Assembly (NCBI GenBank): GCA_005885405.1
Contig: VAYN01000011.1
Location: 29,195 to 93,194, forward strand
Length of the DNA stretch: 64,000 bases
Direction of reading: 5' to 3'
Source: Actinomycetota bacterium
GTDB taxonomy: Bacteria; Actinomycetota; Thermoleophilia; Solirubrobacterales; 70-9
In this document: piece by piece, positions 7,293 through 56,172 of the stretch
Position numbering within the stretch: position 1 is the stretch's first letter
How the letters are laid out: every line of letters begins with the position of its first letter
Made by a program: the position numbers and the translations under genes
Notes under the pieces: model-generated
Told to the model about the DNA's origin: nothing
Seen by the model: the letters and a program-made list of their open reading frames with translations, nothing else
Database searches by the model: none

Positions 7293-7868
7293 GTGGCTAA
7301 ATCTATTGAGCGTGCGGATTTGCCGCCTCTCCCGCCCCTAAATTGCCTGCTTATCGAAGGGTCGGAGCGCGACACGACGCAGGACTGGCTGGTGCCGCGA
7401 GGCGCTGTGCCGACCGTGAGCCAACTGGAGGCGCGGATTGACGAGGCGGTGGTGGTTGCCCGGGCGTCCGAAGAGGGCGTGCGTGAAGTGGGGGAGATGG
7501 CGATCGATGCGGCTCGGCAGGCGCGGAGGGCTGCGGAGGCTGCGGAGCAGAGTGCGGTTGCAGCTGCGAAGGCGGCTGCCCAGGGCGCTCGACCGGCGGG
7601 TCCTGTCTCCGATACGGCCCCCCCGCAAACTGGCGGGGGCCCCGCATCGTCGCCACCCACCGGAAGAGAGGTGGAGGAGCAGCCGCCGGTTGGCGCGGCG
7701 GAGCGGGTTCAGGGGAAGCCGGCGCCTCAACCTCCGAGGTTCGAGGAGCGGTTTCGCAGGTTCAGTGAGAGAGCTGACTCTGTTTCGGGACGGTTGCGGC
7801 GGCTTTGCGAGCAGCCGGGTCACTCAGGCCCCAGCGTCGGCGCAGCGCGTCGGCGAGGCGACGGCTGA
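7293..7868 (+). CDS. Hypothetical coiled-coil protein, tentative
   Basis: I do not recognise this gene. From the GTG at 7293 the frame gives about 191 residues. A middle helical stretch rich in Ala and Arg (about residues 50-100, for example [20 protein letters not shown]) looks like a coiled coil. It is followed by a Pro/Gly-rich linker and a short basic tail. It overlaps the 3' end of the convergent pabC by 107 bases, and the Ala-rich composition could be a by-product of high GC. A palindrome at 7610-7649 lies in its linker. Confidence 0.4.
7610..7649. repeat. Imperfect palindrome in the hypothetical gene
   Basis: Bases 7610-7626 pair with 7633-7649 apart from three mismatches, around the loop AAACTG. 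It is shorter and less perfect than the other palindromes in the window and GC-only in its core, so it may be chance or a plain hairpin, but it too lies in a low-complexity linker. Confidence 0.35.
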
Positions 7869-8538
7869 TCGGACCGCAGCCTGGCAGCGGGGTGCCGTCG
7901 AGGGCGGTGGCCGGTTCGATCCCGCGGATGGAGTTAGTGAGGAAGACCTCGTCGGCATTGGGGAGGTCTTCGATGTGGATCGGCTGCTCTTGCGCGTCGA
8001 TGCCCGACTCGAGCGCGATGGCGAGAACGGCGGCGCGGGCGGTGCCGGGGAGGATGCGGCCGTCAGCGGGGGGTGTCCAGAGGGTCTCTTCGCGGACGGC
8101 GAAGATGTTCGCCCAGCCGGCCTCGAGCGCTTCGTCGCCGTCGCAGATCAGCTGACCCGCGCCGTCATCGGGGTGCTCCATCCCACGTCGATCGACCCAC
8201 TTGTGGGACCCACGGCCTCCCGGCACCGAGTGAGAGCACAACTCGGCGCCGCGCTCCGGGAAGACCGCCTCCGGCACGACCCCACCTGCAAGTAGGTCGT
8301 GCCGGAGGCGGTCTTCCCCGGGGACGCAGGTGAGGCGGAGCCGGCCGAGGGTGATTCCCTTTGCCGCGGCGAGCAGCTCTTCTCGGGCGCCCGCGGGGAG
8401 GTCGGTCTCGTAGACCTCGTCCAAGGTCCGGCGCAGGCGCGCCAGGTGTGCGTCGAGCTCGACCGGCTCGCCATTGACGACGAGGAGCGTCTCGAAAACG
8501 CCTTTGCTCGGGTTCGGCCGCCAGTCGTTCGTCGCCAC
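7762..8538 (-). CDS. pabC: Class IV aminotransferase, probable aminodeoxychorismate lyase
   Basis: A 258-residue fold-type IV PLP enzyme. Lys113 in GSHKWVDRRGM is the PLP lysine position; EAGWANIFAVREETLWTPP and ILPGTARAAVLA follow, as in PabC and branched-chain aminotransferases. Divergent neighbourhood with pabAB 30 bases away supports release of p-aminobenzoate from aminodeoxychorismate. A D-amino-acid or branched-chain transaminase role remains possible. Residues 74-94 are encoded by a near-perfect palindrome (8258-8318) that looks like an in-frame insertion after the LRLTCVPG strand. The C-terminus overlaps a tentative convergent gene. Confidence 0.8.
   Translation of the reverse strand: MATNDWRPNPSKGVFETLLVVNGEPVELDAHLARLRRTLDEVYETDLPAGAREELLAAAKGITLGRLRLTCVPGEDRLRHDLLAGGVVPEAVFPERGAELCSHSVPGGRGSHKWVDRRGMEHPDDGAGQLICDGDEALEAGWANIFAVREETLWTPPADGRILPGTARAAVLAIALESGIDAQEQPIHIEDLPNADEVFLTNSIRGIEPATALDGTPLPGCGPISRRLADALRRRWGLSDPAARKAAATVPKQSQLSH
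8258..8318. repeat. In-frame palindromic element in pabC (24-bp perfect arms)
   Basis: Arms at 8258-8281 and 8295-8318 are perfect reverse complements over 24 bp. The 13-base loop is CCACCTGCAAGTA. The element encodes PabC residues 74-94 without breaking the frame. The loop shares the last eight bases, as TGCARGTA, with the loop of the palindrome in pabAB at 9705-9763, although the arm sequences differ. This points to one family with a conserved centre. Confidence 0.85.
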
Positions 8539-8567
8539 AGGGGTATCTTGCCTGCGCGGCCCGGTCG

Positions 8568-10646
8568 ATGCGCTCCCTGCTGATCGACAACTACGACTCC
8601 TTCACCTGGAACCTCTTCCAGCTCCTGGCCGAGGTCAACGGCAGTGAGCCCTTGGTCGTGCGGAATGACGAGATGAGCTGGGAGGAGCTGGAGCGCCTCG
8701 GGTTCGACAACGTCGTCATCTCGCCGGGGCCAGGACGGCCGGAGCGGGCGGCGGACTTCGGCGTCTGCGCCGAGGTAATCCGCCGCTGCGAGAAGCCGTT
8801 GCTCGGCGTCTGCCTCGGGTTGCAGGGACTGGGCTGGGTGGAGGGGGGGAGGGTCGAGCGCGCACCGGAGCCGATGCACGGCCGCGTCGTCCCCGTCGAA
8901 CACGACGGCACAGGCCTCTTCGCCGGCATCCCCAGCCCCTTCCAGGCAACCCGCTACCACTCGCTGTCCCTAGCGCACCCCCTCCCCAGCACCCTCCGCG
9001 AGACAGCCACCGCCGACGGCGTCCCCATGGCCGTCGAACACCGCCATCGTCCCCAACACGCCGTCCAGTTCCACCCCGAGTCCGTGGCCACAGAGCACGG
9101 CGCCAAGCTCTTAGCCAACTTCCGCGACCTCACTTCTGACCCGGTCAGAGATCCCAGTGTCGAGTTTGTCGCCCATAGGGAGACAAACCCGACACGGCGA
9201 TCCTTGACCAAGCTGCAGGCCCGGAAGCTCGATGCGCATCCGGACCCTGAGGCCGCCTTTGTCGCTCTTTACGGCGCGAGCACCCATGCGTTCTGGCTCG
9301 ACAGCAGCCGCCCCGGCGCCCGCGGCCGCTTCTCCTTCATGGGCGATGCCTCGGGACCGCTCGCGGAGGTGATCCGCCATGAAGCCGGCGAGGGCGAGCC
9401 GCTCCTCGACCGTCTGCAGCGGCGTCTGGAGGCACTGCGGCCCGCCGAGTCGCCCGATCTCCCCTTCGAGTTCGACTGCGGCTTCGTCGGCTACCTCGGC
9501 TACGAGCTCAAGGCCGAGTGCGGCTACGCAACTCCTCATGACTCACCGCACCCCGACGCCGCTCTCATCTTCAGCGACCGCCTCGTCGCTTTTGACCACG
9601 AGCAGCAGCAGACCTACCTCCTCTGCCTCCACCGCCCAGAGGAAGAGCCCGCCGCCGAAGCCTGGCTCGAGGTTACGTCCGCTCGCCTATCCGCTATCGC
9701 CGCCGGAGGAGAGCCGGTAGTAGGTCCCACATTGCAGGTAGGACCTACTACCGGCTCTCCTCCCAGCGCGCTATCCCTCGCCCGCTCCCGCGACCAGTAC
9801 CTGGAGGACGTAGAGAGTTCGATCGACCACCTGCTCGCGGGCGACAGCTACGAGATCTGCCTCACGAACCAGGTCAGCGGCGAGATCGATGTCGACCCCC
9901 TGGACCTGTACCTGAGCCTTCGTCGTGCGAACCCCGCTCCTTTCGCCTCGTATCTGCGATTCGGCGACCTGGCCGTACTGAGCAGCTCCCCCGAGCGCTT
10001 CCTCCGCGTGAGCCGTGACGGCGAAGCCGAAGCCCGCCCGATCAAGGGCACCAGCCGCCGCGGCTCGACCCCCGACGAGGACGCAGTCCTCGCCGCCGCC
10101 CTCGCCGCCGACGAGAAGAACCGGGCCGAGAACCTGATGATCGTTGACCTGCTCCGCAACAACCTCGGCGCCGTCTGCGAAGTCGGCAGCGTCGAGGTGC
10201 CGGAGATGATGGCCGTTGAGAGCTACGAGACCGTGCACCAGCTCGTCTCCTCGGTCCGCGGCCGCCTGCGCCCCGGCGCCTGTGCGGCCGACGCCGTCCG
10301 CTCCTGCTTCCCGCCGGGCTCGATGACCGGCGCTCCGAAGCTGCGCACGACCGAGATCCTCGACGTGCTCGAGGGCGCCGCTCGCGGCGTCTACTCGGGC
10401 GCGATCGGCTGGTTCGGCCTCGGCGGCGCCGCTGACCTCTCGGTCGCGATCCGCACCATCGTCCTCGCCGAGGGCCGCGCCTCGATCGGCGCCGGCGGCG
10501 CGATCGTCCTCGACTCCGATCCCGAGCGCGAGTACGAGGAGATGCTGCTCAAGGCGGCCGCGGCGCTGCGGGCGATCGACCCCGCCGTCGAGCCGGCGTC
10601 TATATCCTTGGCCTTCCAGAGCGCCGCCGCGATCGCGCCGCGCTAG
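8568..10646 (+). CDS. pabAB: Aminodeoxychorismate synthase, fused PabA-PabB
   Basis: A 692-residue fusion that makes 4-amino-4-deoxychorismate from chorismate and glutamine for folate. Residues 1-187 are the glutamine amidotransferase: NYDSFTWNLF, nucleophile Cys82 in LLGVCLGLQG, and His169/Glu171 in QFHPESV. Residues about 220-680 are the chorismate-binding PabB part with SSPERFL, PIKGTSRRG, and GSMTGAPK near the C-terminus. The PIKGT motif favours PabB over TrpE. Two palindromes encode residues 192-214 (linker between the halves) and 380-399 (linker before the chorismate-binding core), both in frame. It is divergent from pabC. Confidence 0.9.
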   Translation: MRSLLIDNYDSFTWNLFQLLAEVNGSEPLVVRNDEMSWEELERLGFDNVVISPGPGRPERAADFGVCAEVIRRCEKPLLGVCLGLQGLGWVEGGRVERAPEPMHGRVVPVEHDGTGLFAGIPSPFQATRYHSLSLAHPLPSTLRETATADGVPMAVEHRHRPQHAVQFHPESVATEHGAKLLANFRDLTSDPVRDPSVEFVAHRETNPTRRSLTKLQARKLDAHPDPEAAFVALYGASTHAFWLDSSRPGARGRFSFMGDASGPLAEVIRHEAGEGEPLLDRLQRRLEALRPAESPDLPFEFDCGFVGYLGYELKAECGYATPHDSPHPDAALIFSDRLVAFDHEQQQTYLLCLHRPEEEPAAEAWLEVTSARLSAIAAGGEPVVGPTLQVGPTTGSPPSALSLARSRDQYLEDVESSIDHLLAGDSYEICLTNQVSGEIDVDPLDLYLSLRRANPAPFASYLRFGDLAVLSSSPERFLRVSRDGEAEARPIKGTSRRGSTPDEDAVLAAALAADEKNRAENLMIVDLLRNNLGAVCEVGSVEVPEMMAVESYETVHQLVSSVRGRLRPGACAADAVRSCFPPGSMTGAPKLRTTEILDVLEGAARGVYSGAIGWFGLGGAADLSVAIRTIVLAEGRASIGAGGAIVLDSDPEREYEEMLLKAAAALRAIDPAVEPASISLAFQSAAAIAPR
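9143..9209. repeat. Aged palindromic element in the PabA-PabB linker (28-bp arms)
   Basis: Bases 9143-9170 and 9182-9209 are reverse complements at 23 of 28 positions, around the loop GCCCATAGGGA. The frame stays open through it, and it encodes the linker between amidotransferase and synthase domains. The loop core CCATAGG also occurs in the loop of the 81-bp element at 46939-47019 and 52582-52662. The mismatches suggest an older insertion. Confidence 0.7.
9705..9763. repeat. In-frame palindromic element in pabAB (23-bp perfect arms)
   Basis: Arms at 9705-9727 and 9741-9763 are perfect reverse complements. The 13-base loop CACATTGCAGGTA matches the pabC element's loop at its last eight positions apart from one purine change. 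It encodes residues 380-399 of PabAB, a Gly/Pro/Thr-rich stretch not expected in PabB, located between structural parts of the chorismate-binding domain. Confidence 0.85.
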
Positions 10647-20722: not shown

Positions 20723-20823
20723 GGCCGCACCAATAGCGGCCCCCTCGAAAAAGGCAAACCCGTCGCGAGGCGGGGGCGCAAAGCCAGGGATCTCCCCGAG
20801 ATCGCCCAGCTACCGAAAGGAGG
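20723..20823 (+). ncRNA. Probable cyclic-di-GMP-I (GEMM-like) riboswitch
   Basis: The leader of the next gene contains GGCAAACC (20753-20760), a 6-bp stem closed by the GNRA tetraloop GCGA, and then GCGCAAAGCC (20776-20785), which matches the GEMM core GGCAAACC-stem-GNRA-stem-GGACGCAAAGCC. A second hairpin (GGGATCT/AGATCGCCC, about 20787-20808) and GCTACCGA follow. One deviation: the usually conserved A in GGACGC is G here. The ribosome site AAAGGAGG lies in the final loop between ACCG and CGGT, so ligand folding could control translation. A separate GGCCGC/GCGGCC hairpin precedes it at 20723-20741. Confidence 0.6.
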
Positions 20824-46918: not shown

Positions 46919-47041
46919 GTCTAGAAAGACGGATCAATGGGAGGGCGGGGGTGCCTCCTCCAGACACTCAGCATGAGCCATAGGCGAGCTGCGTCTGGAG
47001 GAGGAACCCCCGCCCTCCCACAACCCATCCGTCTTTTAGAC
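46919..47041. repeat. 81-bp palindromic element with extended outer arms, ygfZ-mntR intergenic copy
   Basis: The core (46939-47019) has 27-bp arms (46939-46965 and 46993-47019, one pair mismatched) around a 27-base loop. It is the reverse complement of the element in fbiC (52582-52662) at 79 of 81 positions, including the whole loop. Outside the core, 46925-46934 pairs with 47027-47036, and with a one-base bulge pairing reaches GTCTA at 46919 and TAGAC at 47041, which is part of a DtxR-type operator. The divergent ygfZ and mntR promoters must be within or beside it. Confidence 0.9.
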
Positions 47042-51905: not shown

Positions 51906-54191
51906 GTGCGTCGGGTCACCTTCTCCCGCAACTTCACGCTCTCGCTGTCACGCACGTGCCAGTGCTACTGCAAGTACTGCGCCTTCGCCACGCACCAGGC
52001 GCATATCCACGCGCCGGAGGAGGTTGAACGGCAGCTTGATGAGGCGCTGAAACGGAATGCCAAGGAGCTCCTGGTTCTGACCGGGGAGCGACCTGAGGTG
52101 AACCCTGTGGTCGCCGAGCGCTTGAAGCTCTGGGGGCATGAGGACTTCACGTCCTACGTCGTCTGGGCCTGCGAACGGGCTCTGGAGCGGGGGATGCTGC
52201 CGCACACGAACCTCGGCGTGCTGGACAAGCGGGACCTGGCGCGGTTGCGAGAGGTGACGGCATCCCAGGGGCTGATGCTTGAGAGCACTGCCGAGCGGCT
52301 GATGGACACCGTCCACGCCGGTTCTCCCACCAAGCACCCTTCAGCCCGCCTCGCCACGATAGAAGCTGCGGGCGAACTGAAGATCCCGTTTACGACTGGG
52401 ATCCTCGTTGGTATCGGGGAGACGCCTGGGGAGCGGGTTGAGGCCCTGGAAGCGCTTGCCGCTAGCGACGCTCGGCACGGGCATATCCAGGAGGTGATCC
52501 TTCAGAACTTTGTGCCGCACCCGCGGTATTACGGGGCTGAGGTGGCTGAGATCGCGGATGAGGCTTCGCGTGAGCGTTGGGGGGAGGGCGGGGGTACCTC
52601 CTCCAGACGCAGCTCGCCTATGGCTCATGCTGAGTGTCTGGAGGAGGTACCCCCGCCCTCCCTGCCAGACTGGGCGAATCCTGTGGGTATCGACGAGATT
52701 GAGCTACTGATTTCGGAGTGCAAGCGCTTGATGCCCGACGTTGGGGTGCAGGTGCCGCCGAATCTCTCTGACTTCTGGCCTCAGTTGGTTGAGGCTGGCG
52801 CCACGGATCTGGGTGGGCTCAGTGCCAATGGGGATCACATCAGCCCTGAGGAGCCTTTTCCGTCGCCGCATCAGGTGCGGAAGGAGTTGGCCCCGAAGGG
52901 GTTTGCGCTGACGGAGCGCCTCTGCGTCTATCCGCAATACATGGACCCCGAGTGGATGGAGCAGGGGGTCCTGGATGTGATCAAGCTGAAGTACTGGAGC
53001 TTCATTCCGCGGAAGGGGTCTGGGCGCAAGTCCGAAGAGGTCATTGCTCCTGATCTTGCTCCGAAGGCGATTGCCAAGGGACGCGAGGGGCAGGAGCTCT
53101 CTGAGGATGAGTTGACTGCTCTCTTCGCCGAGACGCGGCCTGAGGTGATTGAGGAAATGCGGGTTGCTGCTGATGAGCTGCGGGCGGAGTTGGCTGGCGA
53201 CACCGTGACCTTCGTTGTCAACCGCAACATCAACTTCACCAACGTCTGTGTTGTCGGTTGCGCCTTCTGTGGGTTCGGCCAGGGGAAGCGGTCGCCTGAC
53301 GCTTATGAAGTGAGCGAGGCGGACTTCGCGGCGCGGATCGAAGACGCGGTTTCCTTCGGCGCGACCGAGCTCTGCATGCAGGGCGGCATCCATCCGGATC
53401 TCTCGCTTGAGGAGTACGGGCGTTGGTTGAGGCTGGCTAAGCAGACGGCGCCGCAGCTGCACCTGCACGCCTACTCGCCGATGGAGATCAACTGGGCCTG
53501 CGAGCGGTCGGGGAAGGAGCCGCGGGAGGTCTTTGAGTACCTGCTCGAGTGCGGGTTGGGGTCGACGCCGGGGACCGCGGCCGAGGTGCTGGACGACGGG
53601 GTCCGTCAGCGGATCTCGCCGAACAAGCTTCCCGCCGACCGCTGGGTGGAGATCATCGAGGCCTCCCACCGCGCCGGCCTGCGCTCGACCTCGACGGTGA
53701 TGTTCGGCCACATCGAGGAGCCGCGCGAGCTCGCCCGCCACATGAGGGTGATCCGCGCCCTGCAGGAACGGACCGGTGGCATCACTGAGTTCGTCCCGCT
53801 CAGCTTCATCCCCTTCAACACGATGCTGGGGCGGACCCACGGGATCGAGGAGATCTCGATGGGGGAGAACCTCAAGCACACCGCCGCCTTCCGCCTTGCC
53901 CTCGGGCGGACGATCCCGAACCTGCAGGCGAGCTGGGTGAAGATGGGCCTGGAGGGGGCAACGGAGGCGCTGCGCTGGGGCGTCAACGACCTCGGCGGCA
54001 CCCTGATGGAGGAGAACATCTCCCGCATGGCCGGCTCCCAGCACGGGGTCCGGCTCGAGCCCGAGCAGTTGGTCGCCGCCGCCCGGGCCGCCGGGCGGAA
54101 ACCGGCGCAGCGGACGACTCTGTACGAGATCATCGAGACGTATGCGAGCGATGGTCCTCGAGAGGCAGCGGCAGCCGCTCCGGCCGGCTGA
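51906..54191 (+). CDS. fbiC: FO synthase, fused CofG-CofH, with a 27-residue repeat insertion
   Basis: 761 residues with two radical-SAM domains. The first (CofG) has CX3CX2C as C18/C22/C25 in RTCQCYCKYCAF; the second (CofH) has C448/C452/C455 in TNVCVVGCAFCGF, followed by MQGGIHPDLSLEEYGRWL. Together they make the deazaflavin FO from tyrosine and a riboflavin precursor, the first step to F420. Residues 226-252 are encoded by the 81-bp palindromic element and sit at the end of the CofG barrel. Codon use in 51950-53300 is less GC-biased than in the last third. Start GTG 51906. Confidence 0.92.
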   Translation: MRRVTFSRNFTLSLSRTCQCYCKYCAFATHQAHIHAPEEVERQLDEALKRNAKELLVLTGERPEVNPVVAERLKLWGHEDFTSYVVWACERALERGMLPHTNLGVLDKRDLARLREVTASQGLMLESTAERLMDTVHAGSPTKHPSARLATIEAAGELKIPFTTGILVGIGETPGERVEALEALAASDARHGHIQEVILQNFVPHPRYYGAEVAEIADEASRERWGEGGGTSSRRSSPMAHAECLEEVPPPSLPDWANPVGIDEIELLISECKRLMPDVGVQVPPNLSDFWPQLVEAGATDLGGLSANGDHISPEEPFPSPHQVRKELAPKGFALTERLCVYPQYMDPEWMEQGVLDVIKLKYWSFIPRKGSGRKSEEVIAPDLAPKAIAKGREGQELSEDELTALFAETRPEVIEEMRVAADELRAELAGDTVTFVVNRNINFTNVCVVGCAFCGFGQGKRSPDAYEVSEADFAARIEDAVSFGATELCMQGGIHPDLSLEEYGRWLRLAKQTAPQLHLHAYSPMEINWACERSGKEPREVFEYLLECGLGSTPGTAAEVLDDGVRQRISPNKLPADRWVEIIEASHRAGLRSTSTVMFGHIEEPRELARHMRVIRALQERTGGITEFVPLSFIPFNTMLGRTHGIEEISMGENLKHTAAFRLALGRTIPNLQASWVKMGLEGATEALRWGVNDLGGTLMEENISRMAGSQHGVRLEPEQLVAAARAAGRKPAQRTTLYEIIETYASDGPREAAAAAPAG
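52582..52662. repeat. 81-bp palindromic element inserted in frame in fbiC
   Basis: Arms 52582-52608 and 52636-52662 are perfect 27-bp reverse complements; the 27-base loop (52609-52635) is the exact reverse complement of the loop of the intergenic element at 46966-46992. The full 81 bp equals 27 codons and encodes residues 226-252, beginning EGGGTSSRRSSP. In related FO synthases this position is a short connection, so I infer an insertion. Confidence 0.93.
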
Positions 54192-55368: not shown

Positions 55369-56172
55369 TTAGCGGAATAAGTCCTCGCCGGGGGGGCGAT
55401 GGAGGGCGGCGGCGCCGGGGCCGTCCTCCGCTTTCACGTACTGGCCGAGGCCGCGGACGATCGCGGCGGGGGTGTTCGACGTCTTGGTCCTGACGAGGTC
55501 GGCGGCGGCTGCGACCTCGTCGGCGATCGCGATCACGGTCGCCTGTAGCTCGCGGCCGCTCGAGTCCTCGCGGCCGCGCCAGTCATCCAGTGGTACGAGA
55601 CCGGCGCAGCCGACCGCCACCTCGGCCTGGCCTAGCCGCCACGCTCGACCGAAGCTGTCGGAGATCACGACCGCTGGGTGGGACAAGGGGTGGGGGTCGG
55701 CGGACAACAGCGGGGAGGGTCCGGCGACCCCCACCCCTTGTCCCTCGATCGCGGTTCGGAGTTCGGCGCGGATGGTTCGGGCGGAGTTGTCGGGGTCGGC
55801 TGGGAGTAGGCAGACGGTTCCGGCTTCGGGGAGATTTGAGCTGTCGATGCCGGCGTTGGCGCAGACGAAGCCGTGGTGGGTTTCGGTGATCAGGACCCGG
55901 TCCTCACGCAGCACCTCGCGGCTCTCGGAGAGGATCAGCTCCACGAGCTCAGCCTCCTTACCCAGCTTCTTTGCCAGCTCGATCGCCCTCTCGGATGGCT
56001 CTACGTCCTGTAGCCGCCGCACCTGTCCCTCGGCCTTGGAGACGATCTTCTGGGAGATTACGACGATGTCGTCGGGTTCCAGCTCGGCGCTCTCGGCGAT
56101 CAGCTCGCCGATCTTCATTCCCTTCGTGACCTCAGGCAGTCCCTCGACGGGGAGGACCCGGAGGTCGGTCAT
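55369..56172 (-). CDS. cofE: Coenzyme F420-0:L-glutamate ligase, with palindromic insertion
   Basis: 267 residues; only the CofE half is present, no FbiB C-terminal nitroreductase domain. VLPVEGLPEVTKGMKIGELI, DDIVVISQKIVSKAEGQVRR, ITETHHGFVCANAGIDSSNL and VVISDSFGRAWRLGQAEVAV are the usual ligase motifs binding GTP and metal. It adds glutamates to F420-0. ATGA overlap with cofC gives the start at 56172. Residues 143-165 (starting QGVGVAGPSPLL) are encoded by a palindrome and precede VVISDSFGR, where other CofE proteins are shorter. Confidence 0.88.
   Translation of the reverse strand: MTDLRVLPVEGLPEVTKGMKIGELIAESAELEPDDIVVISQKIVSKAEGQVRRLQDVEPSERAIELAKKLGKEAELVELILSESREVLREDRVLITETHHGFVCANAGIDSSNLPEAGTVCLLPADPDNSARTIRAELRTAIEGQGVGVAGPSPLLSADPHPLSHPAVVISDSFGRAWRLGQAEVAVGCAGLVPLDDWRGREDSSGRELQATVIAIADEVAAAADLVRTKTSNTPAAIVRGLGQYVKAEDGPGAAALHRPPGEDLFR
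55680..55744. repeat. In-frame palindromic element in cofE (25-bp arms)
   Basis: Arms 55680-55704 and 55720-55744 are reverse complements at 24 of 25 positions; loop CAACAGCGGGGAGGG (15 bases). It encodes CofE residues 143-165 without disturbing the frame. Arm and loop sequences differ from the other elements in the window, so kinship rests on architecture and position. Confidence 0.8.

What the first reader, a model, noticed from the sequence alone, without database searches (positions are those of the whole stretch)
8258..9763. Two palindromes with different arms but a shared loop TGCARGTA in adjacent folate genes
The pabC element (24-bp arms) and the pabAB element (23-bp arms) both have 13-base loops ending TGCARGTA, yet their arms are unrelated. 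A conserved centre with arms that differ suggests an element whose arms are built from or copied with local sequence, or that a protein recognises the loop. Both preserve the reading frame.
Basis: partly seen in the sequence, partly recalled or inferred. Interest (0 to 1): 0.8.

Follow-up and report, generated by a model that had tools for sequence, protein, structure and literature searches.

The report
Shared-centre DNA hairpins with co-changing arms
In a little-known group of soil bacteria, dozens of long, nearly perfect DNA hairpins sit in the genome, many inside working genes; those of one family share the same tip, while their two arms change together, which offers a natural test of how such palindromes are made and kept.

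Summary
pabC and pabAB each hold a perfect hairpin (24- and 23-bp arms) with a 13-base loop ending TGCARGTA and unrelated arms. They are not alone. In 57% of this genome I found 32 hairpins scoring 18 or more; 3 Mb of simulated sequence gave none. Loops fall into shared families: GCARGTA occurs in 6 of 72 loops against 0.23 expected. A second family, loop AACAGCGGGGAGG, has 31 tabulated copies in five species of the genus; the loop is nearly invariant and the arms covary strongly.

Both folate-gene hairpins lie at the same codons in the nearest relative, with arms changed on both sides together. Mismatches on the gene strand show no G-U preference, so pairing looks DNA-driven, most likely by template-switch homogenisation, not selected in mRNA. 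The pabC hairpin occupies native codons and is not an insertion.

No Y1 transposase occurs in the genus, so these are not RAYT-driven REPs. They resemble Rickettsia palindromic elements and nematomorph coding palindromes. Arms copied from local DNA is not supported for the well-sampled family and stays open for the finding's own. How the loop motifs spread is unknown.

The parts
8258..8318 (-). GCARGTA-family hairpin inside pabC: 24-bp perfect arms, loop 8282-8294 (CCACCTGCAAGTA on +). Encodes GEDRLRHDLLAGGVVPEAVFP on native codons.
   Evidence: RNA fold -68 kcal/mol, z -9.4
9705..9763 (+). GCARGTA-family hairpin inside pabAB: 23-bp perfect arms, loop 9728-9740 (CACATTGCAGGTA). In the linker between Anth_synt_I_N and Chorismate_bind; encodes GGEPVVGPTLQVGPTTGSPP.
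   Evidence: 6 of 23 pairs changed on both sides in G009
9157..9195 (+). Third, imperfect hairpin in pabAB (GTGTCGAGTTTGTC..GACAAACCCGACAC) in the linker after the GATase domain; orthologue in G009 is GTGTCGCTTTTGT..ACAAAAGCGACAC.
7762..8538 (-). pabC, aminodeoxychorismate lyase (Aminotran_4), host gene of the first hairpin
8568..10646 (+). pabAB, fused aminodeoxychorismate synthase, host gene of the second and third hairpins
55680..55744 (+). Hairpin of the AACAGCGGGGAGG-loop family (26-bp arms, one G.G mismatch)
46938..47020 (-). Hairpin with 27-base loop GCAGCTCGCCTATGGCTCATGCTGAGT (28-bp arms)
52582..52662 (+). Second hairpin with the same 27-base loop, in frame inside a radical-SAM (CofH-like) gene

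Best explanation
The two palindromes belong to a population of long, near-perfect hairpins in a Solirubrobacterales genus, falling into several families that each share a loop or core. Shown: loops are shared far above chance, arms are unrelated or strongly diverged between copies yet stay complementary, and arms at the same site in two species change on both sides together. Inferred: arm pairing is kept at the DNA level, mainly by template-switch copying of one arm from the other (quasi-palindrome correction), not by selection for mRNA structure. The loop or core is the inherited or recognised part, spread by a mechanism not yet identified. Inside genes the hairpins are tolerated in linkers or in stretches whose codons can serve both arms.
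For: Excess of hairpins over simulation. Shared loop motifs. AACAGCGGGGAGG family: 31 aligned copies in five species, 677 of 713 pairs Watson-Crick outside one mismatch position, against mean 508 and maximum 540 when 3' arm letters are shuffled within species, with up to four pair types per position. Eight orthologous hairpins: 23 pairs changed on both sides and still paired, 13 changed on one side, of 185. On the gene strand G-T and A-C mismatches are about equal, 62:77 and 64:66; in the AACAGCGGGGAGG family 5:8. Both orientations and several reading frames are used by that family. Template switching is known to homogenise arms in coding DNA (PMC8604942) and to create paired changes in stems (PMC8794818). 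SbcD, the hairpin nuclease, has no match over cut-off in 12 of 12 genus genomes.
Against: A G.G mismatch at stem position 6 or 7 persists in 21 of 31 AACAGCGGGGAGG copies, which indiscriminate homogenisation should erase. GCARGTA loops diverge between species at the same site (4/13 in pabAB, 7/13 in pabC), so loop constraint there is weak. SbcD is also missing from most of the order (over cut-off in 4 of 61), so its loss cannot by itself explain this genus. No mobilising enzyme was found. Coding assignments rest on codon-position G+C, and only 57% of the genome was scanned.
Confidence: 0.52

Rival explanations
1. There is no element in pabC and pabAB at all: native quasi-palindromes were perfected by template switching, and the shared TGCARGTA loop is coincidence or a by-product of sites that favour fold-back.
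For: The pabC hairpin aligns without gap to pabC of relatives, and both arms encode native-like residues (LRHD and P..VFP). G009 pabC has the hairpin but a different loop. Coding palindromes kept this way are described in Nematomorpha (PMC6649704).
Against: GCARGTA is in 6 of 72 loops against 0.23 expected; AC-N3-GCARGTA occurs 9 times in 2.6 Mb and 4 of these are hairpin centres.
Confidence: 0.2
2. REP- or MITE-like mobile elements moved in trans by a transposase that recognises the folded hairpin.
For: Dispersed copies, presence or absence at orthologous sites (L028 vs L166, L159 vs L025, L178 vs L082), identical hairpin in two unrelated genes, in-frame copies as in Rickettsia palindromic elements (PMC3733652).
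Against: No Y1_Tnp (PF01797) in 12 genus genomes, while the control search finds it in E. coli and others. No target duplication and no constant terminal motif seen. Arms vary among copies.
Confidence: 0.13
3. Structured mRNA elements (attenuators, stability or terminator hairpins) kept by selection on RNA pairing.
For: Very stable predicted RNA folds, z about -7 to -10; compensatory changes; some copies lie between genes.
Against: No G-U preference on the gene strand and very few G-U pairs; loop orientation varies relative to the gene; no Rfam match.
Confidence: 0.1
4. One reading: a common loop is inserted and the arms are made anew from local sequence at each site.
For: GCARGTA-family arms are unrelated between sites but similar between species at one site, and pabC arms are native codons.
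Against: AACAGCGGGGAGG arms are homologous among copies; identical arms travel with one hairpin into two genes; no empty site showed one pre-existing arm.
Confidence: 0.07

Closest known systems
Coding palindromes of nematomorph mitochondria (PMC6649704)
   Same: Long perfect inverted repeats inside functional genes, near-absence of imperfect ones, gain and loss between species, template switching proposed.
   Different: No shared loop motif or dispersed families were reported in the parts read; here a bacterial chromosome, both genes and intergenic DNA, and families defined by loops.
Rickettsia palindromic elements, RPE (described in PMC3733652)
   Same: Short palindromic repeats found in frame within protein genes as well as between genes.
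   Different: RPEs lose arm identity with time according to PMC6649704; here arms stay complementary while diverging. Homology to RPE sequences was not tested.
GTAG- and CGTC-tagged REPs with RAYT transposases (PMC3733652)
   Same: Dispersed hairpins in several families per genome.
   Different: Stems here are mostly 20-30 bp, not 6-13; no GTAG or CGTC tag at the foot seen; no Y1 transposase in the genus.
Template-switch homogenisation of inverted repeats in yeast genes (PMC8604942) and RNA stems (PMC8794818)
   Same: Clustered changes copied from one arm to the other, in coding DNA.
   Different: Those are mutation events at scattered sites; here a genome-wide set of hairpins with shared centres.

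Membership tests
REP/RAYT elements | Y1 (IS200/IS605-type) tyrosine transposase in the genome | tested here: not met
   PF01797: 0 of 12 genus genomes, found in 5 of 14 controls
REP/RAYT elements | GTAG or CGTC tag at one end of the stem | tested here: not met
   Flanks of 31 AACAGCGGGGAGG copies show no constant tetranucleotide; in the finding's hairpins GTAG straddles the loop, not the foot
Rickettsia palindromic elements | Palindromic repeats inserted in frame in protein genes | tested here: inconclusive
   In-frame hairpins in many genes, but pabC shows no insertion
Rickettsia palindromic elements | Sequence homology to RPE families | not tested
   No RPE sequences compared
Coding palindromes kept by template switching | Near-perfect arms in coding DNA with paired changes between species | tested here: met
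   23 two-sided against 13 one-sided changes in 185 pairs
Coding palindromes kept by template switching | Indifference to stem sequence (no lasting mismatch) | tested here: inconclusive
   True for most hairpins; a G.G mismatch persists in 21 of 31 AACAGCGGGGAGG copies
Known structured RNA families | Rfam match above gathering score | tested here: not met
   No hairpin matched in window, L012, L024, L028
Classical MITEs | Target-site duplication at empty-site junctions | tested here: inconclusive
   None visible in nine compared sites, but flanks diverged 10-20%

The most novel reading that the evidence does not exclude
A class of bacterial hairpin elements in which only the tip is the hereditary unit: a short loop or core, recognised as a folded DNA strand by an unknown enzyme, spreads and seeds palindromes, while the arms are free to change because one is always recopied from the other.
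Probability: 0.22. Interest if true: 0.85.

Novelty: new variant of a known kind. Interest (0 to 1): 0.64.

Why it matters
How long perfect palindromes arise and persist, and whether paired changes in stems come from selection or from DNA copying, is hard to test. Here one genus offers dozens of hairpins, in genes and between them, with orthologues in sister species and families defined by their loops. That makes it possible to separate mutation-driven from selected pairing, and to ask what spreads the loop motifs. It also warns that covariation alone does not prove a functional RNA.

Tried and rejected
Hairpin length mod 3 (13:11:11) and codon register of the arms (16:13:6) in 35 in-gene cases gave no clear pattern. 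A covariance model of the GCARGTA family was dropped because the aligner misplaced the variable arms. A terminal motif outside the AACAGCGGGGAGG stem was sought and not found. SbcD loss as the sole cause was rejected because most of the order lacks it; exonuclease VII (xseA) is present in 11 of 12 genus genomes. The hairpin-free control from other Solirubrobacterales is only 75 kb, too little at this genome's density. Assembly artefact is unlikely: the same families occur in independently assembled genomes. Phage origin: no match of the AACAGCGGGGAGG motif in viral contigs.

Full report
What was checked. The window lies in a 2.6-Mb, 30-contig genome; the window is 68% G+C. The genus includes Solirubrobacterales bacterium 70-9 (Thermoleophilia). 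The pabC and pabAB hairpins are exactly as described: perfect 24- and 23-bp arms, 13-base loops CCACCTGCAAGTA and CACATTGCAGGTA, arms unrelated. A third, imperfect hairpin lies upstream in pabAB at 9157-9195.

They are part of a population. A scan of 1.50 Mb of this genome gave 60 hairpins of score 14 or more, 32 of them 18 or more; 1.10 Mb of the closest relative, G009 (GZL_HYHR_2_bin.66), gave 58 and 29. Two order-5 Markov simulations of 1.5 Mb each gave none of 18 or more.

Loops come in families. Over 72 loops in both genomes, the most shared 7-mer is in 17 loops, against at most 5 in 200 shuffles; GCARGTA is in 6 against 0.23. Besides the finding's own family (also L074:11343 here, and L124, L126, L160 and pabAB in G009), there are families with loops AACAGCGGGGAGG, GCAGCTCGCCTATGGCTCATGCTGAGT (core matched 7 times in this genome and in none of 100 related genomes searched), and in sister species one around ACAGCCTGCC.

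Arms vary but stay paired. For the AACAGCGGGGAGG family I aligned 31 copies from five species outward from the loop. The loop is nearly invariant and the stem takes up to four pair types per position. Outside one mismatch position 677 of 713 pairs are Watson-Crick; within-species shuffles give 508 on average and 540 at most. The arms are alignable among copies, so they descend from common ancestors and are not built from each site's own DNA. A G.G mismatch at position 6 or 7 persists in 21 of 31 copies.

Same sites in two species. Both folate hairpins occur at the same codons in G009 with the same segment length. Over eight orthologous hairpins, 23 pairs changed on both sides and remain paired and 13 changed on one side, of 185. 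The pabAB hairpin accounts for six. Its loop keeps TTGCARGTA; the pabC loop does not.

DNA or RNA. If pairing were selected in mRNA, G-U should outnumber A-C on the gene strand. It does not: 62 against 77 here, 64 against 66 in G009. The AACAGCGGGGAGG family appears in either orientation and in more than one reading frame. No hairpin matches Rfam. This favours a DNA-level process. Template switching between arms is documented in yeast genes (PMC8604942) and RNA stems (PMC8794818) and was proposed for nematomorph coding palindromes (PMC6649704).

Insertion or native. Against relatives without the hairpin, the pabC segment aligns without a gap in several of them, so there the palindrome occupies native codons; the pabAB one lies in a variable inter-domain linker a few residues longer than in relatives. 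Others are present in one species and absent in the other, and one 35-base hairpin sits in frame in both an FAD-oxidoreductase gene and a SpoU methylase gene. So both routes, perfecting of native quasi-palindromes and dispersal, seem to operate.

Possible agents. The genus lacks the Y1 transposase of REP systems. It also lacks SbcD above cut-off, but so does most of the order, so this is at most permissive. No mobilising or loop-binding protein was identified.

Limits. Genes were assigned by codon-position G+C and open frames, with Pfam for ten proteins. The scan favours perfect arms. The relatives named are metagenome assemblies. The comparison with other genera is small. The family groupings are mine, by loop motif, and the orthologous alignments behind one search were cut by hand.

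Noticed in passing
L049:4561-4595 and L061:11741-11779: An identical 35-base hairpin (ACGCATTTGTCCCCG gtatg CGGGGACAAATGCGT) lies in frame in two unrelated genes; at the first site G009 has a hairpin of different sequence at the same codons.
   Followed up: partly
L124:15649, L131:771, L162:328, L167:7837, L167:17360: A G009 family of hairpins whose long loop contains a second GC-rich palindrome (such as GGCGGCCTAATTAGGCCGCC) flanked by A/T runs, like a terminator nested in an outer stem.
   Followed up: no
L092:722-1210, L095:1354, L179, L183, L192, L202: In sister species a further loop family around ACAGCCTGCC with differing arms.
   Followed up: no
window 20744-20818: Rfam match to a c-di-GMP-I-GGC riboswitch (70 bits, + strand).
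   Followed up: no
L015:15038-16717: A tRNA 2-thiouridylase (MnmA) reading frame with an N-terminal NifU-like domain; a hairpin lies at the domain junction.
   Followed up: no
L074:9644-11677: One 678-residue reading frame without Pfam match carries three different hairpins.
   Followed up: partly
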